A DNA stretch of 64,000 nucleotides from Halomonas alkalicola. GTDB lineage: Bacteria > Pseudomonadota > Gammaproteobacteria > Pseudomonadales > Halomonadaceae. The notes under the pieces are model-generated. The model worked only from the letters and a program-made list of their open reading frames with translations. It did not search any database and had not been told where the DNA came from. A program made the translations under genes and the position numbers. Shown here in pieces: positions 30,035 through 59,071 of the stretch. Each line of letters starts with the position of its first letter. The first letter of the stretch is position 1. The stretch covers positions 558,001 to 622,000 of the forward strand of contig NZ_CP131913.1 in NCBI RefSeq assembly GCF_030704205.1, read 5' to 3'.

Positions 30035-30114
30035 GGCGGGGTAGGTCCGGGACCATCAACGCTCGCGACGGCGAGGGCACTGTTATGATGCAGGTGACGT
30101 AACAGGAGAACACG

Positions 30115-30819
30115 ATGCCTGCCGACGCCAACGCCTTCCAGACCGCCCTCGCCCTGATCCTGGGCATGGATCCGGTGCTGCTCGGCATCGTGGCGCTCTC
30201 GCTGCAGGTCTCGCTGAGCGCGGTGCTGATCGCCGCCCTGCTCGCCCTACCGCTGGGCGCGGCGCTGGCGCTGTGGCGCTTCCCCGGGCGCGGCGCTGTG
30301 ATCGTGGCGCTGAATGCGCTGATGGGCCTGCCGCCGGTGGTGGCGGGGCTCACCGTCTACCTGCTGCTCTCCCGGGCGGGCCCCCTGGGCCAGTTCGGCC
30401 TGCTCTTCACCCCCACCGCCATGGTCATCGCCCAGGTGATCCTGATCCTGCCGATCATCGCCGCCCTGACCCGCCAGCAGATCGAAGAGCTCCACAGCGA
30501 GTACCGCGAGCAGCTGCGCTCCCTCGGCGTCTCGCGGCCGCGCATGATTCCCACCCTGCTGTGGGACGCGCGGTTCTCGCTGCTCACCGTGGTGCTGGCC
30601 GGCTTCGGCCGCGCCAGCGCCGAGGTAGGGGCGGTGATGATCGTCGGCGGCAACATCGACGGCGTCACCCGGGTGATGACCACCGCCATCGTGCTCGAGA
30701 CCAGCAAGGGCAACCTGCCGCTGGCCCTCGGGCTCGGCCTGGTGCTGCTGGGGCTGGTGCTGCTGGTCAACGCCGCCGCTCACCTGGTCGGCGAGACGGC
30801 GCGGAGACGGCTGGGATGA
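30115..30819 (+). CDS. tupB: Tungstate ABC transporter permease
   Basis: A 234-residue permease with five to six hydrophobic segments. The EAA-type loop (EYREQLRSLGVSRPRMIPTL) is followed by GFGRASAEVGAVMIVGGNID, a stretch characteristic of TupB/WtpB-type oxyanion permeases. Tup systems import tungstate for molybdopterin/tungstopterin enzymes. It overlaps tupC by four bases, and tupA closes the operon. The first helix region has GLPPVVAGLTVYLLLSR, also usual in this family. Vanadate- or molybdate-specific relatives are possible alternatives. Confidence 0.88.
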   Translation: MPADANAFQTALALILGMDPVLLGIVALSLQVSLSAVLIAALLALPLGAALALWRFPGRGAVIVALNALMGLPPVVAGLTVYLLLSRAGPLGQFGLLFTPTAMVIAQVILILPIIAALTRQQIEELHSEYREQLRSLGVSRPRMIPTLLWDARFSLLTVVLAGFGRASAEVGAVMIVGGNIDGVTRVMTTAIVLETSKGNLPLALGLGLVLLGLVLLVNAAAHLVGETARRRLG

Positions 30820-31544
30820 ACGACATGCTCCGTCCCGCCACCACCGCCGGGATCACCCCGCAGGCCTTCGAGGGGGTGAGCGTCAGCCACCGCGGCCAGT
30901 CGCTGCTGCAGCCGCTCGACCTGCGCCTCAGCGGCTGTCGCCGCACCCTGGTGATGGGCCCCAACGGCGCCGGCAAGAGCCTGCTGCTGCGCCTGGCCCA
31001 TGGCCTGCTGGCGCCCAGTGCGGGCCGAGTGCGCTGGGAGGGCATCACGCCCCGCCAGGCCATGGTCTTCCAGCGCCCGGTGCTGCTGCGACGCAGCGCT
31101 CTGGAGAACCTCACCTATGCGCTGGCGGTGACCGGCACGCCCCGCGGCGAGCGCCGCGAGCGGGCCCGGGAGGCCCTCACCCGCTTCGGCCTGGCCGCCC
31201 TGGAGAAGCGCCCGGCCCGGGTGCTCTCCGGCGGCGAACAGCAGCGCCTGGCGCTGGCCCGCGCCTGGCTCACCCGCCCCGAGGTGCTGTTCCTGGACGA
31301 GCCCACCTCGGCGCTGGACCCGGCGGCGATCCGCGCCGTGGAGGAGGCCGTGCGCGACTTCCATGCCCGCGGCACGCGCATCGTCATGACCACCCATGAC
31401 CTGAACCAGGCGAAGCGCCTGGCCGACGAGGTGGTGCTGCTCTACGGTGGTCGGCTGATCGAGCACACCCCGGCCGAGCGCTTCTTCGCGGCACCGCGGA
31501 CGCCCGAGGGGCAGGCCTTCCTGCGCGGCGAACTGGTCTGGTAG
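30816..31544 (+). CDS. tupC: Tungstate ABC transporter ATP-binding protein
   Basis: A 242-residue ATPase starting with an ATG inside the tupB stop. Walker A is MGPNGAGKSLLLRLAHG near residue 45, the Q loop MVFQRPVLLRR, the signature LSGGEQQRLALARAWLTRPE, Walker B VLFLDEPTSALDP, and the switch His in MTTHDLNQA. A longer frame reaches back to 30273 but overlaps tupB entirely and is rejected. It energises TupB for TupA-bound oxyanion. Confidence 0.9.
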   Translation: MNDMLRPATTAGITPQAFEGVSVSHRGQSLLQPLDLRLSGCRRTLVMGPNGAGKSLLLRLAHGLLAPSAGRVRWEGITPRQAMVFQRPVLLRRSALENLTYALAVTGTPRGERRERAREALTRFGLAALEKRPARVLSGGEQQRLALARAWLTRPEVLFLDEPTSALDPAAIRAVEEAVRDFHARGTRIVMTTHDLNQAKRLADEVVLLYGGRLIEHTPAERFFAAPRTPEGQAFLRGELVW

Positions 31545-31569
31545 CCCCTTTTCTCTCGAGGAGAGCAGC

Positions 31570-32391
31570 ATGACGCCACGCGCGATCGCCCTGACCGCCC
31601 TGCTACTGGCCGGCAGCGCCGGCCTGGCACCGGTCCACGCCGCTGACGACCATATCGTCCTGGCCTCGACCACCTCCACCGAGCAGTCCGGGCTCTTCGG
31701 TCACCTGCTGCCGGCCTTCGCCGAGGCCACCGGCATCCGGGTGCGGGTGGTGGCCGTGGGCACCGGCCAGGCCTTCGAGATCGCCCGCCGTGGCGATGCC
31801 GACGGTCTGCTGGTCCACGACGGCGAGGGGGAACGGCGCTTCGTCGAGGCGGGCTACGCCACCGAGCGCGCCGACGTGATGTATAACGACTTCGTGATCA
31901 TCGGCCCCGCCGAGGACCCCACCGGCATCGCCGAGGCCGAGAGCGTGGCTGAGGCCCTGCGCCGGATCGCCGAGGCCGAGGCGCCCTTCGCCTCCCGCGG
32001 TGACGACAGCGGCACCCACCGCGCCGAGCAGCGCCTCTGGGAAGCGGCGGGCGTCAAGCCCGGGGGGGGGTGGTGGTACCGCGAACTCGGCAGCGGCATG
32101 GGCCCGACGTTGAACACCGCCGCCGCCATGGACGCCTACGTGATGAGCGACCGCGCCACCTGGGCGGCCTTTCGCAACCGCCAGTCGCTCGCGCTGCTCT
32201 TCGAGGGCGACGAGGCGCTCTTCAACCAGTACGGCAGCATCCTGATCGACCCGGAGCGCCACCCCCACCTGAAGCACGACCTGGCCGAGCGGTGGCACCA
32301 GTGGCTGCTCTCCGAGCAGGGCCAGCAGGCCATCGCGGAGTTCACCGTCAACGGCGAGCCGCTGTTCTTTCCCAATGCTCGCCCCGACTGA
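31570..32391 (+). CDS. tupA: Tungstate-binding periplasmic protein
   Basis: A 273-residue secreted receptor with a signal peptide ending near VHAADD. The mature start IVLASTTSTEQSGL matches the TupA motif (TTTSxxxSGL) whose Thr/Ser residues coordinate the oxyanion. Further family marks: GTGQAFEIARRGDADGLLVH, ADVMYNDFVIIGP, and FASRGDDSGTHRAEQRLWE near residue 140. A run of nine G near 32060 encodes PGGGWWYRELGSGMG in frame. Order tupB-tupC-tupA is a known arrangement. The composite transposon starts 72 bases after its stop. Confidence 0.92.
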   Translation: MTPRAIALTALLLAGSAGLAPVHAADDHIVLASTTSTEQSGLFGHLLPAFAEATGIRVRVVAVGTGQAFEIARRGDADGLLVHDGEGERRFVEAGYATERADVMYNDFVIIGPAEDPTGIAEAESVAEALRRIAEAEAPFASRGDDSGTHRAEQRLWEAAGVKPGGGWWYRELGSGMGPTLNTAAAMDAYVMSDRATWAAFRNRQSLALLFEGDEALFNQYGSILIDPERHPHLKHDLAERWHQWLLSEQGQQAIAEFTVNGEPLFFPNARPD

Positions 32392-32454
32392 CCTGAAGCG
32401 GAGGACTTACGGCCCGGGCGTTCTCGGCACTCGCCTGAAACCGGGTGGTGGGAG

Positions 32455-32462
32455 GGATTTGA
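32455..32462 (+). repeat. Target-site duplication, left copy (ggatttga)
   Basis: The eight bases just outside the left inverted repeat of the first IS66 copy read ggatttga. The same octamer stands just outside the right end of the second copy at 43680-43687. IS66-family elements duplicate 8 bp on insertion. Confidence 0.85.
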
Positions 32463-34011
32463 GTAACTATTCAGGTGGCTGCGGATGGGATATCGCCAAC
32501 CAGCTGATTTTTCTGGCATAGTGCACAGCATCATTCGGCACACCTATGCGGTGATATGACCATCAGCGATATCAACGTCGACGAGGCCCTGGAGCGGGTC
32601 CGGCAGCAGCTCAAGGAAGACCAGACGGTCTCGCCGTCGCTGCGTGCCGCCATCGATGTGCTGATGCTGCTGGTCAAGCTCATGGCCGATCGCCTGGCCA
32701 CCAGTAGCCGCAACAGCAGCAAGCCACCGTCCCAGGATCCCAATCGCCAGCGCCGCTCGCGCGCCAAAGGCGAGCGGCGCCCCGGCGGACAGCCAGGGCA
32801 TGAGGGTAAGACGTTGGCGCCGGTGACGGACCCCGACGAGGTGGTCAAGCTCCGTGTCGATCGTCGGCAACTCCCCAAGGGGCGTTCTTACCGCCCGGTC
32901 GGCGTCGAAACGCGCCAAGTGCAGGACATCGTAATCCAGGCCGTGGTCACCGAATATCAGGCTGAGGTCCTCGAAGATGATCAGGGGCAACGCTACGTGG
33001 CGCCATTCCCCGAGGGCGTGACTCGCCCCATCCAGTATGGCCCTCGCCTCAAGGCGCATGTCGTCGTCTATCTCTCCCAGTATCAGCTGTTGCCCTATGC
33101 GCGTATCCGCGAGTTGCTCACCTCGCAGTGCGGCCTGTCGCTGAGCACCGGCACCCTGTTCGCCTTCAACCAGGAGGCCTACCAGCGGGCCGAGGCGTTC
33201 GCCGAGTGGGTGATCCCGGCGCTACGTGAAGCAGCCACCGTCCATGCCGATGAAACCGGAATGCAGGTCGGTGGCAAACGCTACTGGCTACACAGCGCCT
33301 CCAACGAGGCCCTGACCTGGTTGGCCCCGCACCCCAAGCGCGGCCAGGAAGCGATGGACGCCATCGGCGTATTGCCCTTCGTGCGTGGCGTGCTGGTGCA
33401 TGATCACTGGAAGCCCTACTACCGCTATCCGGATTGCCGGCACGCGCTCTGTAATGCGCACCACCTTCGGGAGCTGACAGCGGCCTGGGAGAACGATGGC
33501 CAGGCATGGGCCAAGGCCTTGCATGACCTGTTGTTGGAGATGCATCGCGCCGTGGAGGTGGCCGACGGCTGCCTCTCGGCCGATGAGACCCGAGCCTGGC
33601 GGCAGCGCTATCGAGATTGCCTGGCGAAAGGGGACGCCGAGTGCCCCCCGCCGGTGAAACCGCCACCTGGAACGCGAGGCCGGGCCAAGCGCACCAAGTC
33701 GCGCAACCTCCTGGAACGCCTCCAGGCGTACGAGGACGACGTGTTGCGCTTCCTCGACGACCCTGCCGCTCCCTTCACCAACAACCAGGGGGAACGCGAT
33801 CTGCGAATGACCAAGGTCCAGCAGAAAATCTCGGGCTGTTTCCGCTCCTGGGAGGGTGCTGAGATCTTCTGCCGCATGCGTAGCTTTCTCTCGACCGCCG
33901 TCAAGCAAGGGGTAGCGGCGCATACCGCACTGGAGCAACTGTTTGCGGGGGAGGTGCCAGCCTTCATGCAGCAAGAAGCCCCGACTCAGCCAACCGGTGC
34001 TGAATAGTTAC
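32463..34011 (+). mobile_element. IS66-family element (ISBst12-like), copy 1
   Basis: 1549 bp with 12-base perfect terminal inverted repeats gtaactattcag (32463) and ctgaatagttac (ends 34011). It encodes a single transposase and no TnpA/TnpB accessory genes, as in the ISBst12 subgroup. It differs from copy 2 by an extra gtc triplet near 33060 and two substitutions seen in the 5' leader. Its right end cuts into an IS1380-type transposase gene. Confidence 0.9.
32556..34007 (+). CDS. IS66-family transposase (TnpC type), copy 1
   Basis: A 483-residue transposase. The N-terminal part contains a predicted helical stretch and the linker [20 protein letters not shown] with [11 protein letters not shown], typical of IS66 TnpC (zinc-binding/IS66 N domains). 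The DDE core shows the first Asp in [20 protein letters not shown], the second in [17 protein letters not shown], the CNAHHLREL motif specific to IS66, and the Glu in [20 protein letters not shown]. Its stop lies within the right terminal repeat. It has one more Val than copy 2 ([11 protein letters not shown]). It appears intact and may be active. Confidence 0.92.
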
Positions 34012-34392
34012 CCCCGGTTTATCATCAGTTCCCGTTACGATGATGGCTTCAAGCTTTACTACGAGCAGTACTGTGCCCGGGGTGACATGGAGAACCGGAT
34101 CAAGGATCAACAACTGAGCCTGTTTGCTGACCGGACCTCCAGCACGCACTGGTGGGCCAATCAGTGGCGGCTGATCTTGTCGGGCTTCGCTTATACGCTG
34201 TTCGAGCGGTTACGGACTTATCTGAAGCACACGCCCTTCGCGCGCATGAGTCCGAGCAACCTGAGGCTCAAGCTCATCAAAGTAGGCGCGGTCATCATCC
34301 GCAATACGCGTCGAATCCGAGTACTCATGAGTGACAGCTACCCCTATAAAACGGCGCTATCCGATCTCGTCAGGCGGTTGGTTCCTAACTGA
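34012..34392 (+). pseudogene. IS1380-family transposase, C-terminal fragment
   Basis: The last 126 codons of a DDE transposase. The remaining sequence (YDDGFKLYYEQYCARGDMEN, then RIKDQQLSLFADRTSSTHWW and ANQWRLILSGFAYTLFERLR) matches the end of IS1380-family proteins, including the Glu of the catalytic triad in the RGDMENRIK motif. The 5' part is gone: IS66 copy 1 abuts it exactly, so the frame now opens inside IS66. It must be non-functional. It shows that the donor replicon already held an IS1380 element beside the arginine genes. Confidence 0.8.
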
Positions 34393-34670
34393 CTGCTCGG
34401 GCGCCCCCGGCCCGAAGCAATGGGGGAAAGGGGGAAGTGTGTCTGAACGCCGGAAAGTGGTTAAAAAGTAGCCGATGTAAGTCGAGCCAGTAGGTGTTTA
34501 GCGGTGTTACAGCCTGAGTGCGGTACTGGCTGAGGTACTATGAGAAATCCAAGCTAGATCAGCAACTTATTTTTTGTCATAAGAAGCCACTACAAGACTA
34601 CTTTTAAAACCAAAAGCTAATGCAAGGCTGCCAAACAAAGCTCTCTAACAAAGCTTCCTAGTAAAAGCAC

Positions 34671-35606
34671 CTAACGGAAGTTAATGCCCTGTATGTTGGT
34701 GCTAACACGGGTGCCGGCGGCTCCCTGAAGAATTTCTTCAATATCAGCCAGTGCGCCAATAACCGCTTCTTTACCGGTATTCCTGCTGTAGCTGCATGCT
34801 GCCTCTATTTTTGGCCCCATGGAGCCCGCCGCAAACTGCATGTCATCCAGCACGTCCGGATGAGCACTAGCGATCGCTTTGTGGTTTGGCCCATTCCAGT
34901 CGATATAAGCAGCATCAACATCCGTCGCAATGATCAGCAAATCAGCCTGCAACTGCTCAGCGAGTAAGGCCGAACAGAGATCCTTATCGATCACTGCCTC
35001 TACGCCATTGAGTTTATTATTTTCGTCGTAGGCAGTAGGAATCCCTCCCCCGCCAGCACAAATGACGATCGTTCCTTTTTCGAGAAGCCACTTTACCGGG
35101 AGAATCTCGAAAATTCTGTTGGGACGCGGGCTGGCAACTACACGACGGAATTTGTCCCCATCGGGTGCAATGCTCCAGCCTTTTTCCTTAGCCAAGCGTT
35201 CGGCCTCTTCCGCTGTATAAACCGGGCCTATCGGCTTGCTGGGGTGCTGAAACGCAGGGTCATCAAGGTCAACTTCCACTTGTGTTAATAAAGTAGCCAG
35301 CGGAACCTCAACAGGCAGCAGGTTGCCGAGTTCCTGCTCAATCATATAACCGATCATGCCTTCCGTTTCTGCACCTAGAACATCCAGTGGGTAGGCACTA
35401 ACATCCGTGTAAGCGGCCCCCTGCAGTGCCAGCAACCCAACTTGCGGGCCGTTGCCGTGGGCGATTACCAATTCATTACCTGGTGCAATCCTGGCAATTT
35501 GTTCACAGGCAATTCTAATATTTCCACGCTGAGCCTCTGCTGTCATCGGCTCTCCACGACGTAGTAAGGCATTTCCACCCAGTGCAACGACAATTCGCAT
35601 CGACAT
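34671..35606 (-). CDS. arcC: Carbamate kinase
   Basis: A 311-residue amino-acid-kinase-family enzyme that converts carbamoyl phosphate and ADP to ATP, ammonia and CO2, the last step of the arginine deiminase pathway. Marks: the N-terminal [32 protein letters not shown] near residue 50, [17 protein letters not shown] near 195, [13 protein letters not shown] and the C-terminal [16 protein letters not shown]. Full length for ArcC. It is the last gene of the operon, six bases after arcB. Codon use is less GC-rich than the chromosome outside the transposon. No clear terminator follows in the roughly 280 bases to the IS1380 fragment. Confidence 0.95.
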
Positions 35607-35612
35607 TTCTCC

Positions 35613-36623
35613 TCAGACCCCGCCCAAGGTGGCAACAAGCACCGCCTTGATGGTGTGCATGCGGTTTTCCGCCTGTTCAAACGCAATACAGGCCGGCGAC
35701 TCGAAGACCTCCTCAGTCACTTCAATGCCATTAGCCAAGTGCGGGTATTGATCAGCCACCTGCTTGCCGATTTTAGTTTCCGTATTGTGGAAGGCTGGTA
35801 AACAGTGCATGAATTTGACGCGCGGATTACCTGAACACTGCATCAGGCTGCTGTTTACCTGATAAGGGAGGAGCTGCTCAATTCGCTCCCCCCAGGCTTC
35901 TACTGGCTCGCCCATCGAGACCCACACGTCCGTGTGGATAAAGTCGACACCTTTAACCGCCGCTTCTGGGTCCTCGGTCAACGTAATAGTGGCACCACTT
36001 TCCTCCGCAAAACGCTGGCAAGCATCGATGTGTTCTTGAGAAGGCCACAACGCTTTGGGAGCAGCGATGCGTACATCCATGCCAAGCTTGGCACCAATTA
36101 ATAGTAGCGATTTGCCCATGTTGTTATGGGCATCGCCCACATAGGCATAGCTGATCTGGTGTAACGGCTTTTGTGTATGCTCCCGCATGGTCATCACGTC
36201 GGCGAGCATTTGTGTCGGGTGATACTCCTCGGTTAAACCGTTGTAAACCGGCACGCCCGCATAGCTGGCCAGCTCTTCGACAACTTCCTGTTTAAAGCCG
36301 CGATATTCAATAGCGTCGTACATGCGGCCCAACACACGAGCGGTATCTTTCATGCTCTCTTTATGGCCAATTTGCGAGGAGCCTGGGTCAATGAAGGTAA
36401 TATTGGCGCCTTGGTCGTATGCGGCCACTTCGAAGGCACACCGGGTACGGGTTGATGTCTTCTCGAAGATCAACGCAATATTCTGCCCCTTGAGAAGTTG
36501 CTGCTCCGTACCGGAGTATTTGGCGCGCTTGAGGTCGCGGGCAAGGTCGAGCATATAGCAAAGCTCACGCTCGCTATGATGCATGAGGCTAAGCAGGCTA
36601 CGGTGATGAATATTAAATGCCAT
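35613..36623 (-). CDS. arcB: Ornithine carbamoyltransferase, catabolic
   Basis: A 336-residue transcarbamylase. In this pathway it splits citrulline by phosphate into ornithine and carbamoyl phosphate. The carbamoyl-phosphate loop is [19 protein letters not shown] near residue 55, the HPTQ contact is in [14 protein letters not shown] near residue 135, and the ornithine/catalytic motif is [13 protein letters not shown] near 272. Length and the arcA-arcB-arcC order mark it as the catabolic enzyme rather than biosynthetic ArgF. Its start lies 11 bases after the arcA stop. Confidence 0.95.
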
Positions 36624-36634
36624 GGTGAACGCTC

Positions 36635-37891
36635 TCAGTAGTCAATGGGGTCACGAATGATCGGGCAGGTCATGCAGTGGCCACCACCACGGCCGCGACC
36701 AAGCTCGCTAGCGCTAATGGTGATAACTTCCACGCCCGCTTTGCGTAGCAGCGTATTCGTCGACGTATTGCGGTCGTAGCCGATCACCACACCGGGCTCG
36801 AGTGCCACAACATTGTTACCGTCATCCCACTGCTCACGCTCTGATTCGAAACTGTCACCGCCCGTTTCAACCACGCGCAAGGCGGGCAAACCGAGCGACT
36901 CAGCGACCACCTCAAGGAAGCTGTTTTCTTCTCGGCGTACATCGATCCTCCCTGGGCGACTCTCATCTGGCCTGAGGCTGAAGGCGACGATATTACGCAC
37001 GACTTCAGGAAAAATGGTTACCAGATCATGGTCACAAAAGCTGAATACGGTATCCACATGCATCGCCGAGCGAGATTTTGGCAGGCCTGCTACAACGATT
37101 CGCTTGGCCGCACCGGCAGAGAATAGCGCCTGTGCCACTTGGCCAATGGCCTGACGAGAGCTGCGTTCGCCCATTCCAATCAGCACAACGCCGTTGCCTA
37201 TCGGCATCACGTCTCCACCTTCCAGAGTCGCTAGGCCATGATCCACATCAGGATCGCCGTACCAGACCTGAAAGTCGGCTTTTTCAAATTCGGGATGAAA
37301 TTTGTAGATCGCCGCGGTAAGCAGCGTTTCTTGGCGCCGAGCCTGCCAGTGCATCGGGTTCAATGTCACACCGCCATAGATCCAGCACGTGGTGTCACGG
37401 GTGAACTGAGTATTCGGTAGTGGCGGTAGAATAAAGCTTGAATGGCCCAGGTAATCACGAAACATTTTGAGGATTTCACCTCCCTGAGACCCCGCCATAT
37501 CATTGGCTGACACCCCGCCAATAAGAAACTCAGCGAGTCGGCGCGGCTCCATATCATCAAGCCAAGCACGCACTTCATCCTGTAGCCCTAACCCCACTTG
37601 ATTGGCAGTAATCTTGCGATCCAGGAGCCAACTGCGCGCCTCAGGAATTTTGAGGGTGTCCGTCAACAGGTTGTGCATTTCCAGCACTTCCACGCCACGC
37701 TCGCGCATTTTGGTCACAAAATCGAAGTGATCACGCTTAGCTTGGCTTACCCACAGTACGTCGTCGAACAGTAAATCATCACAATTACTCGGCGTTAGAC
37801 GCTGATGGGCCAACCCTGGCGAGCAGACCATTACCTTACGTAATTTGCCTGCTTCGGAATGAACGCCAAGCGTTGAGGCATTGGTAGACAT
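36635..37891 (-). CDS. arcA: Arginine deiminase
   Basis: A 418-residue guanidino-group hydrolase that turns arginine into citrulline and ammonia. Catalytic residues are visible: the nucleophile Cys in [20 protein letters not shown] at the extreme C-terminus, His in [20 protein letters not shown], and the Asp/Glu segments in [20 protein letters not shown] and [20 protein letters not shown]. The N-terminal [20 protein letters not shown] is the family opening. It lies 103 bases downstream of the permease and leads the enzyme part of the operon. The pathway yields ATP without oxygen and raises pH through ammonia. Confidence 0.96.
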
Positions 37892-37994
37892 TGCGTTTCT
37901 CCTTGTCGCATGCCAGTAGGCACGTATCGTTTCATCATTGGCTTAGCGGCTTGTGGCCACGACCAACACAAAGTTGAAGTGCTGCCGACGAATC

Positions 37995-39434
37995 TCAGCC
38001 TATAAGAGCTGCCAGACTCAGGCAGGCAAGAATGATCACCGTCAGGATCAACAGCAGCGGCCACATGAATCGCAGCCAGCGCTCATAGGGCACACGCCCA
38101 ATTGCCAACGCCCCCATGACCACGGCAAAGGTCGGGTTGATTAGGTTCACTAATCCGTTCGCCGATTGATAAGCGGTCACCACCAGATCTCGCCCCACCC
38201 CAGCGAAGTCCGCCATCGGGGCTAGAACAGGCATACTCATCACCGCTAACCCTGATGAAGAGGGGACAAAAAACGACATCATCACCTGTAACCAATACAT
38301 CACGTTTATAAAGGCGACGCTGGAAAGACCACTCACCCGCTCTTCAGACCAATGCAGTAGCGTGTCGGTGACAAGGCCGGCATCCATAATGACAACGATC
38401 CCTCTGGCCAGGCCGATAATTAGCGCCACGCCTAATAGCTCCTTGGCGCCGCCTACAAAGGAGTCAACAAAGCGCACCTCACCCAACCGGGAAACAACGC
38501 CGACCACTAGGCTGGATGCCAGAAAGAGTGCCGTCATTTCGCCCATCCACCAATCGGCTGCCAATACACCCCACACCATAATGATGAAGGTGCACGCGAA
38601 CAGAATGAGTACTAGCTTACGGGTGCGGGTAAACGGCAACGTTTCCGCGTCGCGCTGGCTCAGAAAATACTCGCGATCCGCCTCGTACTGATCACTGACA
38701 ATGGAAGCATCGTGACTGCGGCGAACACGGGCTGCATAGCGCATCACATATAGAACCGTCGCCACGAAACAAAGCGCAAGAATCACCAGCCTCAGAACAA
38801 GACCTTCGGTGAAAGGGATACCAGCAGCATCGGAAGCGATGACCGTCGCGAAGGCATTGACTGTTGAACCCAACACCCCCACACCTGCCCCTAGCAGGAT
38901 GATGGCAACGGCCGTTACCGAGTCATAGCCAGCGGCAATGATGATGGGAATTAACAGCATGTAGAAGGCCAGCGTCTCCTCGGCCATTCCATAGGTAGAG
39001 CCACCGAGGGCGAATAGCCCCATTAGCAATGGAATTATCCATTTCTCATGCCCTACCATGCGTTTCATGGCTCGCCCAATACCGGCATCAATCGCCCCGG
39101 TCGCCGTCACAACACCAATAAAACCGCCAATAATCAGTACAAAAAGCGCCACATCGATTGCGTTGGCCACATTGGTCGCAGGGTCATAAAGCCCTGCTAT
39201 TGGGGCCATCAACACATCCCAGGCATTTTGTGGATTAGGCGCTACTTCTTGATAGCTGCCCACCACGGTAACTTCTCGCCCCAACGATTCGTCAAACTCC
39301 CGCTCATACTGACCCGCCGGAACGAACCACGTCATCACCGCAGCAAGGATAGTCAGACTAAATAAAATGGTAAAAGCCGTGGGAAAACGAAAGCGTTTTA
39401 CTTCTTTATTATCACTCGTTTGTGCGTTATCCAT
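37995..39434 (-). CDS. YfcC-family permease, probable arginine/ornithine exchanger
   Basis: A 479-residue membrane protein with about twelve hydrophobic segments belonging to the YfcC/DcuC-like (AitC/arginine-ornithine) permease family. The N-terminal cytoplasmic lead ends in KRFRFPTAFTILFSLTILAA and a conserved TWFVPAGQYEREFDESLGR loop follows. Later marks are GGSTYGMAEETLAFYMLLIP, FVPSSSGLAVMSMPVLAPMA and AYQSANGLVNLINPTFAVVM. In other bacteria such permeases sit in arginine deiminase operons in place of classical ArcD. First gene of the operon; a candidate promoter lies 60-90 bases upstream. Exchange of arginine for ornithine is inference from position. Confidence 0.85.
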   Translation of the reverse strand: MDNAQTSDNKEVKRFRFPTAFTILFSLTILAAVMTWFVPAGQYEREFDESLGREVTVVGSYQEVAPNPQNAWDVLMAPIAGLYDPATNVANAIDVALFVLIIGGFIGVVTATGAIDAGIGRAMKRMVGHEKWIIPLLMGLFALGGSTYGMAEETLAFYMLLIPIIIAAGYDSVTAVAIILLGAGVGVLGSTVNAFATVIASDAAGIPFTEGLVLRLVILALCFVATVLYVMRYAARVRRSHDASIVSDQYEADREYFLSQRDAETLPFTRTRKLVLILFACTFIIMVWGVLAADWWMGEMTALFLASSLVVGVVSRLGEVRFVDSFVGGAKELLGVALIIGLARGIVVIMDAGLVTDTLLHWSEERVSGLSSVAFINVMYWLQVMMSFFVPSSSGLAVMSMPVLAPMADFAGVGRDLVVTAYQSANGLVNLINPTFAVVMGALAIGRVPYERWLRFMWPLLLILTVIILACLSLAALIG

Positions 39435-39496
39435 TGCTCTCCACCTCTAATAAATCACCATGCCATGCATTTTTGCAGGCTAAATAACAGGCACTT

Positions 39497-39524
39497 ATTA
39501 CGGCATATAACCGGTAGTTGTCAA
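39497..39524 (-). promoter_or_regulatory. Candidate sigma70 promoter of the arginine deiminase operon
   Basis: On the minus strand a perfect -35 TTGACA is followed after 16 bases by CGTAAT (4 of 6 matches to TATAAT), about 65 bases before the permease ATG. No FNR/ANR or ARG box was recognised. The -35 box lies only a few bases from the end of the neighbouring IS3-like element. Confidence 0.35.
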
Positions 39525-39548
39525 GGAATCTGTCGCCTCTGAGGTCAT

Positions 39549-40622
39549 TCAGGCCACCTGTTTTTCCGGTTCGGCGACGGTGACCTGGAGCTCCCGCTCC
39601 GGGTTGAGTGACACGGTACCGATCGGCGTCCAGTTGCGGGTCTTGCCGCTCCATCGCGCAGGGTTGGCGTCACGCGCTGCCTGATTGATGACGTGGCGCT
39701 TGGCCAGCACCTCCTTATCTTCGCCCGCATGGCGCTGTGCCGGTGTCACCAAGCGAATGCCGCTGTGCCGGTGCTCGTGGTTGTACCACTGCACGAAGCC
39801 AGCCACCCACTCGCGGGCGTTGTCGAGCGTGGCGAACCCGTCAGTGGGGTAGCAGGGGCGGTACTTGCAGGTGCGGAACAGCGCCTCTGAGTAGGGATTG
39901 TCGTTACTGACCCGCGGTCGGCTGAAGGATGGCGTGATGCCGAGCTCGTGAAGCTTCTCCAGCAGCGTCGCACCCTTGAACGGGCTGCCGTTGTCCGCGT
40001 GAAGCACCAGCGGCTGGTCAATGATCCGCTCGGCCAGCACGGCCCGCTCCAGTACGGTGCGGGAGTTGTAGGCCGACTCGGCCAGGAACACCTCCCAACT
40101 GGTGATCTTGCGGCTGAAGATGTCGACCATCATGACCAGGTAGTAGTGCTGTCCCTTGATCGGGCCGCCCAGCCACGTGCAATCCCACGACCACACCTGA
40201 TTCGGCGCAGTGGCCTGGTAGGTCGTGGGCTTGGCGCGGCGTTGAGGTGGCTTGGCACGGCCCCGATGCACCATTTCGTGGTGCTTGCGCATCACGCGGT
40301 AGAACGACGAGGATGAGGCCAAGTAGCGCTGCTCCTCGTCGAACAGGCGCACCACGATCTGCTCTGGCGGCAGGCTGGCGTACTCGGGGCGGTGGCACAC
40401 GTCGAGGATCTCCTGTTCTTCGGCCGGTGTTAGCGCGTTAGCCGGCACCGGCCGGCCGACCAAAGGGCGCTGGTCCTCGTGCAGCTCGCCGCCGCGCGTC
40501 CAGCGCTGGTACGTCCTGGCGGTGATGCCCAGCTCTCGGCAGGCGGCCTCCAGGCGGGCCCCCTGGGCCCTGGCCTCTTCGATCAGCGCGATGGCGCGTT
40601 GGCGATCTGGGGTGCTGATCAT
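39549..40622 (-). CDS. IS3-family transposase OrfB
   Basis: A 357-residue integrase-core protein. A helix-turn-helix opens it (LEAACRELGITARTYQRWTR), followed by the HTH_21-like region LPPEQIVVRLFDEEQRYLAS. The DDE core shows Asp in NQVWSWDCTWLGGPIKG, Asp in QPLVLHADNGSPFKGATLLE, and Glu in SNDNPYSEALFRTCKYRPCY, with the usual FVQWYNHEHRHSGIRLVTPA behind it. The start overlaps the OrfA stop by four bases, as in elements that make an OrfAB fusion by -1 shifting. Intact by itself. Confidence 0.88.
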   Translation of the reverse strand: MISTPDRQRAIALIEEARAQGARLEAACRELGITARTYQRWTRGGELHEDQRPLVGRPVPANALTPAEEQEILDVCHRPEYASLPPEQIVVRLFDEEQRYLASSSSFYRVMRKHHEMVHRGRAKPPQRRAKPTTYQATAPNQVWSWDCTWLGGPIKGQHYYLVMMVDIFSRKITSWEVFLAESAYNSRTVLERAVLAERIIDQPLVLHADNGSPFKGATLLEKLHELGITPSFSRPRVSNDNPYSEALFRTCKYRPCYPTDGFATLDNAREWVAGFVQWYNHEHRHSGIRLVTPAQRHAGEDKEVLAKRHVINQAARDANPARWSGKTRNWTPIGTVSLNPERELQVTVAEPEKQVA

Positions 40623-41121
40623 GCGTCCTCGTCCCCCCAGATCGCCCTCGCCTTTTTTCTGAGGGCCAGTAACGCTGCGGTCTCCGCCAGGGCCTCGTTC
40701 TTGCGGGCGAGCTCCTTTTCCAGCGCCTTGATGCGCTTGCGCTGTTGCTTGGCCTCGTCGGCTTCACGCTGGCGTTCCGAGTGCGAGAGGCTGGCGGCTT
40801 GCTCGCAGTCATGCCGCCACCGCCCCAGCTGTTCGGGGAAGATGCCCCGACGGCGGCAGTATTCCGCGGTCTCCTGAGCATTCATCGAGGCGGTTTCAAG
40901 CACGGCGTTGAACTTGTCCTTGGACGACCAGCCATCGGTGCCTTTGCCCAGCGCGTCCGGCAGGCAACGTCCCTCGGCGCGGGCTTGCTTGCGCCAGGTG
41001 TAGACGGTGCCCAGCGAGATCCCTTCCTGCTCCGCGATCACCTGCGGGGAGAGAGGAGGTTGTGGGGAGGCAGCAGCTTGGTGACCACGGCTTGCCGGCG
41101 CTCCTCTGAGTAACGAGGCAT
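40619..41121 (-). pseudogene. IS3-family OrfA, frameshifted near the N-terminus
   Basis: The natural start MPRYSEERRQAVVTKLLPPH (ATG at 41121) runs into a TGA after 27 codons. The rest of OrfA (VIAEQEGISLGTVYTWRKQA, then the coiled-coil EADEAKQQRKRIKALEKELA) continues in another frame from about 41041 to 40619. The two parts match one conserved OrfA when one base is restored (or two removed) near 41042-41050. As read, the DNA-binding OrfA would not be made from its normal start. Confidence 0.65.
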
Positions 41122-41231
41122 GAGTGTCTCCTTTCGCCCCCTGATCGGTTTATAGGAACAGGGTATCAGAGGGCACGACAGTCATCCTGACACTGGGGGT
41201 AACCACCAGCACTTAACCTTCCATGACGCTA

Positions 41232-42073
41232 GGGAGCGTTAACAATTAGGCCAGCCATATGACGGCGGATACAAGGTTGAGTAGCGACTGGTAGTTTCTC
41301 GCCAGTCGCTCATAGCGTGTTGCCAGCCGCCTGAACTGCTTGATTTTCTGGAAGAACCTTTCTACCAGGTTGCGATCCTTGTAACAGTGCCAATCTATCT
41401 CGGGGCATTCCAAGCGATTCTTTCTCGGCGGAATCACCGGCTCGGCGCCCACCGCTCGAATGATGTCCCTCAAAGCGGTGGAATCATACCCCTTGTCGCC
41501 AAGCACCGCCGCTGGAGAAAAGCCCGCCAGTAACGCTGGGGCGGCTCCGTACTCAGACGCTTGGACGCTTGGCCCGGTGTGAGGATTAGCCGTACCGGGT
41601 TGCCGAGGGCATCGACCGCCGCGTGGATCTTGGTGCTCAATCCCCCACGCGATTTCCCCATGGCTTCGGTGCTCTGAGCCGTTTTTTTTTTGCCGCCCCA
41701 TGCTGATGAACTTTGACGATACTGCCATCTATCATCAGCTGCTCCATGTCGGGATCATCGGCTAATGTGTCGATAACCTGCTGCCAGACCCCCTTCTTAG
41801 ACCACCGGTTATAGCGCATGTAGACAGTGTGCCAGCGACCGAAGGCGTCGGGCAGATCACGCCAGGGAGCGCCTGTCCGGGCGATCCACAGGACGGCTTC
41901 CACGAACAAGCGATTGTCCTTGGCCGTCACCCCGCGATCTGAAGCTTTGCCGGGGAGCATGTGCTCGATGCGCTCCCATTGGTCATCACGTAGCATTAGC
42001 CGAGGCATAGATCACCGAAAAATGCTGATATTCTAAATCAGCCCGATCTCCATCGGCAATTGTTAACGCACCC
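41232..42073 (-). mobile_element. IS5-family element (IS427-like), inactivated
   Basis: 842 bp with terminal repeats gggagcgttaacaatt (left) and aattgttaacgcaccc (right), 15 of 16 bases matching. TA stands on both outer sides, fitting a TA target duplication. The transposase gene is divided into two frames around an A10 run and carries an 8-bp tandem duplication, so this copy is dead. Confidence 0.85.
41246..42008 (-). pseudogene. IS5-family transposase, broken by an 8-bp duplication
   Basis: Frame A (MPRLMLRDDQWERIEHMLPG, to IDGSIVKVHQHGAAKKK) ends after a run of ten A. The natural continuation TAQSTEAMGKSRGGLSTKIH lies in another frame and is the programmed-shift arrangement known for IS427-type elements. 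A second, abnormal break follows: gacgcttg occurs twice in tandem at 41556-41571, throwing the frame off after LTPGQAS. The C-terminal part (AGFSPAAVLGDKGYDSTALR to SAVIWLA) resumes in a third frame. Deleting one octamer restores continuity. The DDE residues are spread over both parts (IDGS; GDKGYDS; the C-terminal NLVERFFQKIKQFRR). Confidence 0.8.
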
Positions 42074-42133
42074 TAACTATAGGCCAACATTTAAATAAAA
42101 AACTGACAAGCATCAAAAAAATAAAAAATAATT

Positions 42134-43679
42134 GTAACTATTCAGGTGGCTGCGGATGGGGTATCGCCAACCAGCTGATTTTTCTGGCATAGTGCACAGC
42201 ATCATTCGGCACACCTATGCGGCGATATGACCATCAGCGATATCAACGTCGACGAGGCCCTGGAGCGGGTCCGGCAGCAGCTCAAGGAAGACCAGACGGT
42301 CTCGCCGTCGCTGCGTGCCGCCATCGATGTGCTGATGCTGCTGGTCAAGCTCATGGCCGATCGCCTGGCCACCAGTAGCCGCAACAGCAGCAAGCCACCG
42401 TCCCAGGATCCCAATCGCCAGCGCCGCTCGCGCGCCAAAGGCGAGCGGCGCCCCGGCGGACAGCCAGGGCATGAGGGTAAGACGTTGGCGCCGGTGACGG
42501 ACCCCGACGAGGTGGTCAAGCTCCGTGTCGATCGTCGGCAACTCCCCAAGGGGCGTTCTTACCGCCCGGTCGGCGTCGAAACGCGCCAAGTGCAGGACAT
42601 CGTAATCCAGGCCGTGGTCACCGAATATCAGGCTGAGGTCCTCGAAGATGATCAGGGGCAACGCTACGTGGCGCCATTCCCCGAGGGCGTGACTCGCCCC
42701 ATCCAGTATGGCCCTCGCCTCAAGGCGCATGTCGTCTATCTCTCCCAGTATCAGCTGTTGCCCTATGCGCGTATCCGCGAGTTGCTCACCTCGCAGTGCG
42801 GCCTGTCGCTGAGCACCGGCACCCTGTTCGCCTTCAACCAGGAGGCCTACCAGCGGGCCGAGGCGTTCGCCGAGTGGGTGATCCCGGCGCTACGTGAAGC
42901 AGCCACCGTCCATGCCGATGAAACCGGAATGCAGGTCGGTGGCAAACGCTACTGGCTACACAGCGCCTCCAACGAGGCCCTGACCTGGTTGGCCCCGCAC
43001 CCCAAGCGCGGCCAGGAAGCGATGGACGCCATCGGCGTATTGCCCTTCGTGCGTGGCGTGCTGGTGCATGATCACTGGAAGCCCTACTACCGCTATCCGG
43101 ATTGCCGGCACGCGCTCTGTAATGCGCACCACCTTCGGGAGCTGACAGCGGCCTGGGAGAACGATGGCCAGGCATGGGCCAAGGCCTTGCATGACCTGTT
43201 GTTGGAGATGCATCGCGCCGTGGAGGTGGCCGACGGCTGCCTCTCGGCCGATGAGACCCGAGCCTGGCGGCAGCGCTATCGAGATTGCCTGGCGAAAGGG
43301 GACGCCGAGTGCCCCCCGCCGGTGAAACCGCCACCTGGAACGCGAGGCCGGGCCAAGCGCACCAAGTCGCGCAACCTCCTGGAACGCCTCCAGGCGTACG
43401 AGGACGACGTGTTGCGCTTCCTCGACGACCCTGCCGCTCCCTTCACCAACAACCAGGGGGAACGCGATCTGCGAATGACCAAGGTCCAGCAGAAAATCTC
43501 GGGCTGTTTCCGCTCCTGGGAGGGTGCTGAGATCTTCTGCCGCATGCGTAGCTTTCTCTCGACCGCCGTCAAGCAAGGGGTAGCGGCGCATACCGCACTG
43601 GAGCAACTGTTTGCGGGGGAGGTGCCAGCCTTCATGCAGCAAGAAGCCCCGACTCAGCCAACCGGTGCTGAATAGTTAC
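42134..43679 (+). mobile_element. IS66-family element (ISBst12-like), copy 2
   Basis: 1546 bp with the same 12-base terminal repeats as copy 1 and the same orientation. It lacks one gtc triplet present in copy 1. Its right end is followed by ggatttga, the partner of the octamer left of copy 1. Its left flank is a short AT-rich stretch of about 60 bases next to the IS5-like element. Confidence 0.9.
42227..43675 (+). CDS. IS66-family transposase (TnpC type), copy 2
   Basis: A 482-residue transposase identical in its translation to copy 1 apart from one missing Val ([10 protein letters not shown]). All catalytic elements are present: Asp in HADETG, Asp in VHDHWKPY, the CNAHHLREL motif, and Glu in [10 protein letters not shown]. 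Either copy could supply transposase for both and for the composite unit. The near-identity points to recent duplication or gene conversion. Confidence 0.92.
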
Positions 43680-43687
43680 GGATTTGA
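43680..43687 (+). repeat. Target-site duplication, right copy (ggatttga)
   Basis: This octamer directly follows the right terminal repeat of IS66 copy 2 and equals the octamer at 32455-32462. It marks the outer boundary of the composite transposon. Confidence 0.85.
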
Positions 43688-43744
43688 TACGATAAGGGGC
43701 TACTGCCCTTCAGGGGCTCTCGTTTCGGACCGCAGGAGCCATTC

Positions 43745-45367
43745 ATGCCGCTGCTCAGGGTGTTGTCGGTGACCGGCCTCATGGTCGGCACCCTGTTCTT
43801 TGCCTTTTCCCTTACCCCCAGCCTGCTGCCGCGGCCCTGGCTGGTGCAGGGGGGCATCAGTGGTCTTTCGTTCGCCGCCGGCTACGCTCTGGGCGTCGGT
43901 GGCCACTGGCTGTGGCACTACCTGGAGCTGCCCGAACCCGGCAAGCGCCTCCTCCAGCGTATCAAGCTGGTGGCCAGCGTCTTCTGCCTGCTGGCGGCCG
44001 GCGTCTTCCTGTGGCGAGCCTCCGGCTGGCAGGAAGGCATCCGCACGCTGATGGAGATGGATCCGGTGGACGGCACGCGCCCCATCAGCGTGGCCCTGGT
44101 CGCCACCCTGGTCTTCGTCGCCGTGCTGCTGCTGGCCCGGCTGTTCCGCCGCACCTTCCGCTCGCTATCACGCCGCCTGCGCCGCCATGTGCCCCGGCGA
44201 GTCTCCCACATGGTGAGCCTGATAGCCGCCATTGTGCTGTTCTGGGCCGTCATCGACGGGGTGATCTTCGCCCTGACCCTGCGCGCGCTGGACAACTCCT
44301 ACCAGCAGGTCGACCGGCTGATGCCTGATGACCTCGACCCGCCCACTGACCCGCAGCTGTCCGGCAGTGACGCCTCGCTGATCAGCTGGGAGGGGCTCGG
44401 CTTGCGCGGCCGTCGTTTCATCACGGCCACCCCCAGTGCCGAACAGCTGAGCGAGGTCATCGGCGCGCCGGCCCAGCGCCCGGTCCGCGTCTACGTCGGC
44501 CTCAACGCCGCCGAGACACCCGAGGAGCGCGCCGAGCTGGCCCTGGCGGAACTGATTCGGGTCGGCGGCTTCGAGCGTTCGCTGCTGCTGCTGGCCACCC
44601 CCACCGGACGTGGCTGGCTGGACCCCGGTGCCCAGGACACCCTGGAGGCCCTGCACCGCGGCGACGTGGCCACCGTCACCGCCCAATACTCCTACCTGCC
44701 GAGCCCGCTGGCCTTGCTCACCGAGGGCGAATACGGCGTCGAGATGGCCCGTGCGCTCTTCCAGGCGGTCTACGACCACTGGTCAGCGCTGCCGCAGACC
44801 GAGCGTCCGGCCCTCTATCTCCATGGCCTGAGCCTTGGGGCGCTCAACTCGGACAGCGCCTTCGACCTCTACGACATCATCGACGACCCCTTCCAGGGCG
44901 CCCTGTGGAGCGGCCCCCCCTTTCGCAGCGACACCTGGCGCAGCGTCACTGCCGACCGCGACTCAGGCTCCCCCGCCTGGCTGCCTCGCTTCCGAGACGG
45001 CCGGGTCGTCCGCTTCATGAATCAGGACACCGGCCTACTGGACCATGACGACGACTGGGGCGACTTTCGTATCGCCTACCTTCAATATGCCAGCGACCCG
45101 GTGACCTTCTTCGAACCGAGTTCGCTCTACCGGGAGCCCGAATGGATGCGCGAACCGCGCGGCCCGGATGTCTCTCCCGACCTGCGCTGGTACCCCATCG
45201 TCACCATGCTGCAGCTGCTCGCCGACCTGGCTACCGGCAGCGCTCCTCCGGGGTTTGGCCACGAGATCGCGGCCGAGCACTACATCGATGCCTGGGTTGC
45301 CCTCACCGAACCGGACGGCTGGTCGGAGAGCGAACTGGAGCGGCTAAAGGAGACTTTTCGTCGCTGA
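43745..45367 (+). CDS. Membrane-anchored alpha/beta-hydrolase family protein
   Basis: A 540-residue protein. The N-terminal third has four hydrophobic segments (from VLSVTGLMVGTLFFAFSLTP, with SLLPRPWLVQGGISGLSFAA after it) and the C-terminal part is an alpha/beta hydrolase domain of the family pairing an Abhydrolase_9 catalytic domain with its own N-terminal membrane domain. The nucleophile elbow is LYLHGLSLGALNSD near residue 362. PVRVYVGLNAAETPEERAEL lies at the start of the catalytic domain. It probably acts at the periplasmic or membrane face on a lipid or ester. No operon partner; the composite transposon ends 65 bases before the start. Substrate unknown. Confidence 0.8.
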   Translation: MPLLRVLSVTGLMVGTLFFAFSLTPSLLPRPWLVQGGISGLSFAAGYALGVGGHWLWHYLELPEPGKRLLQRIKLVASVFCLLAAGVFLWRASGWQEGIRTLMEMDPVDGTRPISVALVATLVFVAVLLLARLFRRTFRSLSRRLRRHVPRRVSHMVSLIAAIVLFWAVIDGVIFALTLRALDNSYQQVDRLMPDDLDPPTDPQLSGSDASLISWEGLGLRGRRFITATPSAEQLSEVIGAPAQRPVRVYVGLNAAETPEERAELALAELIRVGGFERSLLLLATPTGRGWLDPGAQDTLEALHRGDVATVTAQYSYLPSPLALLTEGEYGVEMARALFQAVYDHWSALPQTERPALYLHGLSLGALNSDSAFDLYDIIDDPFQGALWSGPPFRSDTWRSVTADRDSGSPAWLPRFRDGRVVRFMNQDTGLLDHDDDWGDFRIAYLQYASDPVTFFEPSSLYREPEWMREPRGPDVSPDLRWYPIVTMLQLLADLATGSAPPGFGHEIAAEHYIDAWVALTEPDGWSESELERLKETFRR

Positions 45368-45369
45368 AC

Positions 45370-45954
45370 TTAGCGGATATACCTTTTCAGTTCATCCCCA
45401 AATTCACTCCGCAATCGACTCCACTCCATCTTGAACCAGGGCGTATAGTGCTCCGGGTGAGAGACCAGGTCGGCATCAAGCCTTGCTGGTGATATCCAGC
45501 ACCAGTCGGCGATTTCCTGGCGGTTGGGGCGTGGCTCCTGGTCGCTGACTCCCGGGAAGACTGAGCATAGCTCGTGCTCGGCTCAGCTTGAATCATACTG
45601 AGCCTGATAGTGGAACTTGTAGAGGTAGTCGAATTCCGCCTCGATGCCGACCTCTTGCCATAATCGACGGTGAACCGCTTCTTCCATGGGCTCGCCTCGG
45701 CGTGGATGACTGCAGCAGCTGTTGGACCAGTAGAGCGACCACAGGCGCTTGCCCTTCGCCCGCTGCTGCAGAAGAAGCTCCCCGTCGGCATTGAACACGA
45801 AAAGCGAGAAGGCGCGATGCAGCACTCCGCTTCCTTCGTGGCACTTGGCCTTGTTCAAGAACCCCAGCTCCCTGTCCTCTTCATCGACCAGAATCAGTTC
45901 TTCATCATCGAAGGAAACGGTCTCGTCGCGCTCGCCTGATCCTGTGCTGATCAA
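45370..45954 (-). pseudogene. idi: Isopentenyl-diphosphate delta-isomerase (type I) with an in-frame stop
   Basis: The frame reads as a Nudix-fold type I IDI, which interconverts IPP and DMAPP: LILVDEEDRELGFLNKAKCH, VLHRAFSLFVFNADGELLLQ and the active-site Cys region LYWSNSCCSHPRRGEPMEEA with HRRLWQEVGIEAEFDYLYKF. At codon 124 an in-frame TGA (45583-45585) interrupts it after HYQAQYDSS. The same frame continues with AEHELCSVFPGVSDQEPRPN and ends normally at 45370. A GGA glycine codon mutated to TGA would explain it. The C-terminal third is needed for the fold, so the gene is likely dead unless the stop is a sequencing error. Full length would be 194 residues. Confidence 0.82.
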
Positions 45955-45982
45955 GGTGTCACCTCCATCGCCATATCGCTGT

Positions 45983-56991: not shown

Positions 56992-57009
56992 TCGCAAAGC
57001 CAACAAGCG

Positions 57010-57045
57010 AAAGCCCCCGAGCCAGATGAATGACTCGGGGGCTTT
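57010..57045 (+). terminator. Terminator of the liu operon
   Basis: A 12-bp stem aaagcccccgag / ctcgggggcttt with a 12-base loop lies 19 bases after liuE. It ends seven bases before the outermost attC site, insulating the liu operon and the cassette array from each other in both directions. Confidence 0.88.
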
Positions 57046-57051
57046 GGTATT

Positions 57052-57135
57052 GCATAACGCCGCCAGCACGCGCGGCTTTCTAGTGGAGGCGAAGCCGCAA
57101 CGAAAAAGCCGTCGCTGTGCCTGGCCTTGTTATAA
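57052..57135 (-). repeat. attC site of cassette 6
   Basis: About 84 bp framed by gcataac and gttataa. R'' TTATAAC overlaps the stop of the last cassette gene. Internal complementary arms (e.g. cggctttctag / ... aaaaagccg) allow folding. It is the distal end of the array. Confidence 0.8.
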
Positions 57136-57989: not shown

Positions 57990-58004
57990 AACTTCCCTGA
58001 TGAT

Positions 58005-58082: not shown

Positions 58083-58083
58083 A

Positions 58084-59057: not shown

Positions 59058-59071
59058 ACTACCTCCTTAAA

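What the first reader, a model, noticed from the sequence alone, without database searches (positions are those of the whole stretch)
32455..43687. Composite IS66 transposon that delivered an arginine deiminase operon
Seen: two near-identical IS66-type copies in direct orientation bracket 8.1 kb of AT-richer DNA with a complete permease-arcA-arcB-arcC operon; one perfect 8-bp repeat (ggatttga) flanks the pair, and the inner flanks do not match each other or it. Known: IS66 elements make 8-bp duplications. Inference: the whole unit transposed, giving the host an ATP-yielding, ammonia-producing arginine pathway. Composite IS66 transposons carrying a full catabolic operon are, as far as I know, unusual.
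Basis: partly seen in the sequence, partly recalled or inferred. Interest (0 to 1): 0.8.

Follow-up and report, generated by a model that had tools for sequence, protein, structure and literature searches.

The report
IS66 composite transposon carrying arginine-deiminase operon
A block of DNA holding a complete arginine-burning gene set came into this salt-loving bacterium's lineage from another genus and sits framed by two copies of a jumping gene, while further jumping genes have wedged themselves between the gene set and its oxygen-sensing switch; it is a well-readable new example of a known kind of event.

Summary
Two direct IS66 copies (32463-34011, 42134-43679) bracket 8,122 bp with a full permease-arcA-arcB-arcC operon; a perfect octamer, ggatttga, flanks the pair and the inner flanks mismatch at 6 of 8 bases. 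Three congeners have tupA next to the following gene with no insert. The arc DNA is 97% identical over 4,959 gapless bp to a chromosomal locus of another genus of the family (G193) and nests within that genus. Movement as one IS66-framed unit is the best account, but the octamer alone is weak evidence: 8 of 9 single copies here have one too, so recombination into a single IS66, or assembler placement, would look alike. No genome was found with both this IS66 and closely related arc DNA. New: an IS5 and an IS3 lie between the operon and its native FNR/ANR-type promoter, so a gained pathway is not shown. Precedent: Tn6097 of Paracoccus, an arc composite transposon built on another IS family.

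The parts
32455..32462 (+). left target-site repeat ggatttga
32463..34011 (+). left IS66 copy, 1549 bp, single 483-aa transposase ORF 32556-34007; carries a 3-bp tandem insertion (gtc) and the 'a' allele at alignment column 1358
34012..34553 (+). DNA with a fragment of an IS1380-type element (C-terminal part of the transposase, to 34392), cut by the left IS66; right edge approximate (where identity to the G193 locus begins)
   Evidence: (PF13701)
34671..35606 (-). arcC, carbamate kinase
   Evidence: TIGR00746 over cut-off
35613..36623 (-). arcB, ornithine carbamoyltransferase
   Evidence: NF002470 over cut-off
36635..37891 (-). arcA, arginine deiminase, aligned over residues 1-418 with 1RXX
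   Evidence: TIGR01078 over cut-off
37995..39434 (-). permease of the DcuC/YfcC family, first gene of the operon, presumed arginine/ornithine exchanger
   Evidence: PF03606; NF008611, below its cut-off
39508..39512 (.). IS3 target repeat taacc (other copy 41200-41204); single at the uninterrupted G193 locus
39513..41199 (-). IS3-type element (ORFs 40619-41041 and 39549-40622), ending 78 bp upstream of the permease start codon
41232..42073 (-). IS5-type element, 842 bp, TA on both sides, transposase in two overlapping frames, with an 8-bp tandem duplication absent from 11 other copies
42074..42133 (-). remaining native upstream region of the arc operon: FNR/ANR-like box TTGATgcttGTCAG (42103-42116, minus strand) followed by TATAGT
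42134..43679 (+). right IS66 copy, 1546 bp, 482-aa transposase ORF 42227-43675
43680..43687 (+). right target-site repeat ggatttga

Best explanation
An 11.2-kb IS66 composite transposon. Arc DNA from another halomonad genus (g23 of the genome set) was framed by two IS66 copies: one inserted just upstream of the native anaerobic promoter, the other into an IS1380 element downstream of arcC (inferred from the inner flanks). Whether the framing happened in the donor or on a carrier such as a plasmid is open. The pair then moved with its cargo into the spacer between tupA and a 540-aa gene, duplicating ggatttga (shown: octamers and empty site; inferred: one transposition event). An IS5 and an IS3 inserted between the promoter and the permease gene (shown by comparison with an uninterrupted locus; that this came after arrival is inferred). 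The enzymes look intact, but native oxygen-controlled expression is probably lost or altered.
For: Octamer outside, none inside, and no partner for the inner flanks among any of the 11 full copies. Three relatives with the site unoccupied, tupA and the 540-aa gene 120-132 bp apart. Arc DNA 97.06% over 4,959 gapless bp to G193; the right inner flank of the unit continues there as ordinary DNA, and the operon has the same neighbours on its arcC side in the four other g23 loci compared. arcA tree: the window inside g23, with G193 and G272 (local support 0.937) and with G248 (1.000). Both composite IS copies carry 'a' at column 1358 against 'g' in 9 of 9 other full copies here. No two copies other than this pair share an outer octamer.
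Against: Eight of nine single copies also have perfect octamers, so one IS66 insertion followed by homologous recombination with IS66-framed arc DNA gives the same sequence. The allele argument rests on one column, and G047 of the host's own genus also carries 'a'. The pair is far closer to the resident copies than to any g23 copy found (best 98.3%, G262), and none of the three genomes with arc DNA of 92% or more has this IS66 at E 1e-200, while G262 is not among the genomes with an arc match at E 1e-100. No second site of the unit was found. Short tandem insertions in IS copies could mean imperfect assembly of repeats.
Confidence: 0.7

Rival explanations
1. A single IS66 inserted between tupA and the 540-aa gene (making ggatttga twice); later a circle or linear fragment carrying IS66-framed arc DNA recombined into that copy by homologous recombination.
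For: 8 of 9 single copies have octamers. Direct IS66 copies were shown to frame a deletion attributed to homologous recombination in Agrobacterium (PMC6778807, passages). Direct orientation fits.
Against: A circle with one intact IS66 would leave matching inner flanks; they mismatch at 6 of 8, so the circle must itself have come from an IS66 pair or lost a flank. A crossover with a copy like the residents should bring in 'g' at column 1358 in one of the two; both have 'a'. This is one column only.
Confidence: 0.17
2. The arc block is real and IS66-framed but was put at this site by the assembler; its true site is another IS66 copy, for example the one without an octamer (G000:C1:1203250-1204795).
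For: IS66 copies are nearly identical. Short tandem insertions occur in 8 of 11 IS66 copies and 5 clear ones in 12 IS5 copies, with no deletion in IS66 and none in IS5 apart from a T-run of unclear direction, while the three G047 copies read are identical; such insertions could be gap-closing marks.
Against: One contig of 3.61 Mb, 99.97% complete. Eight of nine single copies have matching flanks, so flanks are mostly paired correctly. Tandem extra bases of 2 bp or more also appear in G000 in DNA aligned with G004, 6 against 0, so they may not be confined to these IS copies.
Confidence: 0.09
3. The arc operon is native to this genus and the flanking IS66 copies are independent insertions.
For: Some members of the genus have an arc operon.
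Against: The strong matches in the genus are 71-77% identical, the window 97% to another genus; three congeners have an empty site; GC3 is foreign. Independent insertions would be expected to have their own octamers, as 8 of 9 others do.
Confidence: 0.02

Closest known systems
Tn6097 (Paracoccus ferrooxidans; two ISPfe2 copies, IS1634 family)
   Same: Composite transposon carrying arcABCD genes with core GC below the host's, flanked by target repeats; captured in the act with a trap plasmid (PMC3281130, section on Tn6097 read; passages)
   Different: Different IS family (IS1634, 6-bp repeats), convergent copies, 17.8 kb with further modules; transposition demonstrated
Tentative IS66 composite transposons (ISEc49-IS682) in a resistance-gene survey
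   Same: IS66-family copies bounding a shared block (PMC7471000, one passage)
   Different: Survey inference around resistance genes; no catabolic operon named in the passage
IS66 pair on Agrobacterium pAt15955
   Same: Direct IS66 copies framing a block that can be lost (PMC6778807, passages)
   Different: 270 kb; loss attributed there to homologous recombination; three-ORF IS66
ACME of staphylococci
   Same: Mobile element carrying an arginine deiminase operon (PMC7074830, search listing and start of abstract)
   Different: Not IS66-framed; moves with staphylococcal cassette recombinases (recalled)

Membership tests
IS66 family insertion sequence | IS66-type DDE transposase | tested here: met
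   PF03050 162.3 bits (cut-off 23.1), NF033517 300.1 bits (cut-off 180):
IS66 family insertion sequence | 8-bp target duplication | tested here: met
   8 of 9 single full copies in this genome, and 6 of 6 copies read in G262, G047 and G004
IS66 family insertion sequence | tnpA and tnpB beside tnpC | tested here: not met
   One long ORF fills the 1.55-kb element; single-ORF members (ISBst12 subgroup) are recalled as accepted in the family, so this does not exclude membership
Composite transposon | Two IS copies frame a block, with a target repeat outside the pair and not inside | tested here: met
Composite transposon | Unoccupied target site in relatives | tested here: met
   3 of 14 other congeners with a strong match to the 540-aa gene have tupA next to it with no insert; in the other 11 tupA was not found in the fetched flank
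Composite transposon | The same unit at a second site | tested here: not met
   One arginine deiminase gene in the genome; the five closest arc loci among 275 family genomes show no IS66 in the 18-20 kb read
Composite transposon | Demonstrated transposition of the unit | not testable with these tools
   needs a trap plasmid
Arginine deiminase pathway operon | arcA, arcB, arcC complete | tested here: met
   Each over an NCBIfam equivalog cut-off; ArcA aligns 1-418 with 1RXX
Arginine deiminase pathway operon | arginine/ornithine exchanger | tested here: inconclusive
   DcuC family, 304.7 bits against the YfcC equivalog cut-off of 500; substrate not tested
FNR/ANR-controlled promoter | TTGATN4ATCAA box near -41.5 and a -10 hexamer directly upstream of the operon (rule recalled) | tested here: not met
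   In the window the box has two mismatches and 2.5 kb of IS DNA lies between it and the gene; the box is perfect in 3 of 5 g23 loci (G272, G221, G242) and has one mismatch in G193 and G248

The most novel reading that the evidence does not exclude
This genome has a mutational process that writes short perfect tandem duplications (1-8 bp) into its transposon copies: 12 such insertions (8 of them 2-6 bp) and no deletions in 11 IS66 copies, which vary by substitution in only 5 columns, and 5 more in 12 IS5 copies, many of them breaking the transposase, including the IS5 and (in frame) the left IS66 of this unit. If real, it is a genome-specific signature acting on mobile elements rather than gap-closing marks of the assembly.
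Probability: 0.2. Interest if true: 0.6.

Novelty: new member of a known kind. Interest (0 to 1): 0.4.

Why it matters
It is a catabolic composite transposon with a donor-type locus, an empty target site, a target repeat and later damage all readable from sequence, showing how an anaerobic energy operon was framed together with its own oxygen-responsive promoter and ended up in another genus of the family. It also warns that a complete operon on a mobile element is not a gained pathway: further insertions lie between switch and genes. The class of event is known (Tn6097), so the general interest is moderate.

Tried and rejected
Reciprocal exchange between IS66 copies as the source of the unmatched inner flanks: rejected, no flank of the other full copies matches. 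A second composite between the close pair L009/L011: rejected, outer flanks differ. Plasmid carriage of the unit: 5 plasmid records matched, none over 80% of the query; they match parts only: IS66 (NZ_CP040453), the stretch of the IS1380-type fragment (NZ_CP011053, AP019515), part of the permease (CP038202) and 166 bases within the IS3-type element (NC_020909). CP038202 comes from Paracoccus ferrooxidans, but the neighbours annotated there (kdp genes among them) are not those described for Tn6097, so I did not treat it as Tn6097. RNA families at 30000-46000: none at the curated thresholds. tRNA genes: none in the window. A promoter supplied by IS3 at its arc-side end: the consensus scan shows none there; one terminator-like hairpin lies in IS5 in the operon direction, but hairpins in the stretch are no more frequent than in shuffles (3 found, 2.4 expected). 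The same-species genome G004: no arc operon match beyond 50 bases and only a 161-base, 69% match to the 540-aa gene region, so it says nothing on the empty site. Paper searches: 'IS66' with 'composite transposon' (46 papers, 25 listed), 'IS66 family' with 'catabolic transposon' (2), 'Halomonas, IS66, transposon' (7), 'arginine deiminase, Halomonas, horizontal gene transfer' (5), 'arginine catabolic mobile element' with 'arginine deiminase' (66, 5 listed), 'ISBst12' (3), 'Tn6097' (4), four words on tandem duplications in transposases (0 papers). In these listings, in the section read of PMC3281130 and in passages of PMC3281130, PMC6778807, PMC7471000 and PMC9240704 I saw no IS66-framed arc operon; the other listed papers were not opened.
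Full report
What is there. The window is positions 558001-622000 of a single-contig 3.61-Mb genome. Its genus (g1) includes assemblies with contigs of the same length as those of Billgrantia endophytica (G023, 37,325 bases) and Billgrantia zhangzhouensis (G089, 377,258 bases), so I take the host to be a Billgrantia-type halomonad; this is an inference. Two IS66 copies in the same orientation lie at 32463-34011 and 42134-43679. The octamer ggatttga stands at 32455-32462 and 43680-43687; the inner octamers are ccccggtt and aaataatt.

Is it chance? The genome holds 11 full copies of this IS and one partial one. Of the 9 full copies outside the pair, 8 have a perfect 8-bp repeat and one (L009, G000:C1:1203250-1204795) has none. 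Of the 121 combinations of a left with a right octamer, 9 match exactly: 8 self-pairs and the composite's outer pair. Three self-comparisons (the two pair members and L009) do not match, and the other 109 combinations have at least 3 mismatches. So the pair behaves as one insertion. But the same numbers show the limit of the argument: nearly every IS66 insertion here has such a repeat, so a single IS66 that later took up arc DNA by recombination would look alike.

The empty site. In 14 congeners other than the host the 540-aa gene and its upstream stretch gave a match at E 2.2e-200 or better. In 3 of them (G060, G061, G062, 86% identical, assemblies 72-88% complete) tupA lies directly next to the gene, 120-132 bp away, with no insert, and the aligned spacer has a single gatttgg (G061, G062) or tttgg (G060) where the window has the octamer. 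In the other 11, tupA was not found in the fetched flank, so they say nothing.

The donor. Of 275 genomes of the family, 34 (own included) have an arc match at E 1e-100 or better. The best outside the host are G193 (97%), G272 (94%), G248 (92%), G221 and G242 (84%), all of genus g23; the best congener is G023 at 77%. The G193 match runs 34554-39512 without a gap at 97.06%. In G193 the operon lies, on its arcC side, beside an alcohol dehydrogenase-like and a thiC-like gene, with an SLC13-type transporter on the other side (names are my reading of the ORFs); the first two lie on the arcC side in all four other g23 loci compared, the far side varies. None of the five g23 loci gave a match to IS66, IS3, IS5 or the IS1380 fragment in the 18-20 kb compared. 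An arcA tree of 26 sequences places the window inside g23, with G193 and G272 (local support 0.937) and with G248 (1.000), apart from the 11 congeners in the tree. GC of the arc genes is 53.4% as in G193, whose flanks are 51.5%; the window outside the unit is 65.5%; GC3 is 0.51-0.62 for the four arc genes and 0.86-0.93 for three native genes. The genus g23 is unnamed in my data; plasmids of Halomonas sp. KO116 and Vreelandella sulfidaeris carry DNA 89-90% identical to the stretch of the IS1380 fragment, which hints at Vreelandella.

Did the IS copies come with it? Five columns vary by substitution among the 11 copies. At column 1358 both members of the pair have 'a', as do 2 of 2 G262 (g23) and 3 of 3 G047 (host's genus) copies read, while the 9 other copies here and the G004 copy have 'g'. 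At column 28 the left member shares 'a' with one of two G262 copies. So the pair is set apart from the resident copies, which speaks against recombination into a resident copy; it is one column, and it does not point to g23 in particular. Against a simple arrival from g23: the pair is much closer to the resident copies (3-12 differing columns) than to the G262 copies (98.3%); of the 12 of 275 family genomes (own included) with this IS at E 1e-200, none is G193, G272 or G248, G221 has only an 82% partial copy, and G262 is not among the genomes with an arc match. Where the arc DNA was framed by IS66, in the donor or on a carrier, is therefore open.

Anatomy and later damage. Reading in the direction of the operon: right IS66, 60 bases of donor upstream DNA, IS5, 32 bases, IS3, 78 bases, permease, arcA, arcB, arcC, a spacer, an IS1380 fragment, left IS66. 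In G193 the upstream pieces 42070-42133, 41200-41231 and 39435-39512 are contiguous, with the overlaps expected of target repeats. IS3 is flanked by taacc on both sides and IS5 by TA, single in G193. The upstream piece holds an FNR/ANR-like box: perfect TTGATN4ATCAA in G272, G221 and G242, one mismatch in G193 and G248, two in the window; TATAGT follows 21 bases after the box, which puts the box centre near -41 if TATAGT is the -10 hexamer (boxes; the promoter rule is recalled). IS5 sits directly after TATAGTTA. So when IS66 framed the block it took promoter and operon together, the IS66 edge lying 17 bases beyond the box, unless IS5 and IS3 were already there; now 2.5 kb of IS DNA lies between switch and genes. 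IS5 has 11 further copies of 98-99% in this genome, and IS3 has one full copy at 91% and one partial at 99%, so insertion after arrival is likely. Both transposase genes point the same way as the operon, so read-through is possible; a terminator-like hairpin in IS5 is within chance expectation. Whether the operon is expressed is open.

Function. ArcA, ArcB and ArcC pass curated cut-offs, ArcA aligns over its whole length with the solved enzyme 1RXX, and no other arginine deiminase was found in the genome. The permease is DcuC/YfcC-like; its substrate is inferred from its place. If expressed, the set would turn arginine into ornithine, CO2 and ammonia with the gain of ATP (pathway as stated).

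How known is this? Tn6097 of Paracoccus ferrooxidans is a composite transposon with arcABCD genes, caught transposing (PMC3281130, that section read). IS66 pairs as tentative composites appear in a survey (PMC7471000, one passage). The staphylococcal ACME carries an arc operon by another route (search listing). The present unit differs in the IS family, the host, and in having a donor-type locus, empty site and later damage all visible. I file it as a new member of a known kind.

A side observation that bears on trust in the assembly. Eight of the 11 IS66 copies carry short insertions, 12 in all, each an exact tandem duplication (8 of 2-6 bp, 4 of a single base) at a different place, and no deletions; by first stop, 6 of the 9 resident transposases are shortened while both members of the pair are full length. 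The partial copy was not compared. The 12 IS5 copies show 5 clear duplications of 1-8 bp, one complex change, and a T-run of 7 or 10 whose direction is unclear. The three copies of the IS read in G047 are identical. Against G004, with 40 stretches of G000 and 20 of G004 and keeping only alignments of at least 800 columns and 75% identity, 51,911 columns hold 60 short gaps (up to 8 bases) with the extra bases in G000 (20 tandem) and 36 with them in G004 (6 tandem); tandem ones of 2 bp or more are 6 against 0, two of the six in one stretch that may itself be a repeat. Gap-closing marks and a real mutation process are both open; raw reads would decide.

Noticed in passing
G000:C1 IS66 copies (window 32463-34011; L011-L017) and IS5 copies (window 41232-42073; L187, L188, L189, L192): Short perfect tandem duplications of 1-8 bp, 12 in 11 IS66 copies and 5 clear ones in 12 IS5 copies, no deletion in IS66; many break the transposase. 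Assembly marks or an insertion-biased mutation process.
   Followed up: partly
G000:C1:1203250-1204795 (L009): The only full IS66 copy besides the pair without an 8-bp repeat; about 980 bases on one side of it matched none of 28 other genomes at E 1e-20, and it lies 3.7 kb from another direct copy, with a resolvase-like ORF (my reading) between them.
   Followed up: partly
window 57000-61900: Integron: integron integrase at 60906-61892 (+) (TIGR02249 over cut-off) next to AT-rich (43-51% GC) cassette-like genes, with an acetyltransferase gene present twice (300-base stretches at 59435 and 60076, 98% identical). Recombination sites were not searched.
   Followed up: partly
window 42103-42116 (minus strand): FNR/ANR-like box with one more half-site change than in the 97% identical G193 locus, as might be expected of a site no longer under selection, though a single change proves little.
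   Followed up: yes
G155:C1:3410394-3413487: Two related IS66 copies (84-85% to the query) lie 7 bases apart in direct orientation in another halomonad genome.
   Followed up: no
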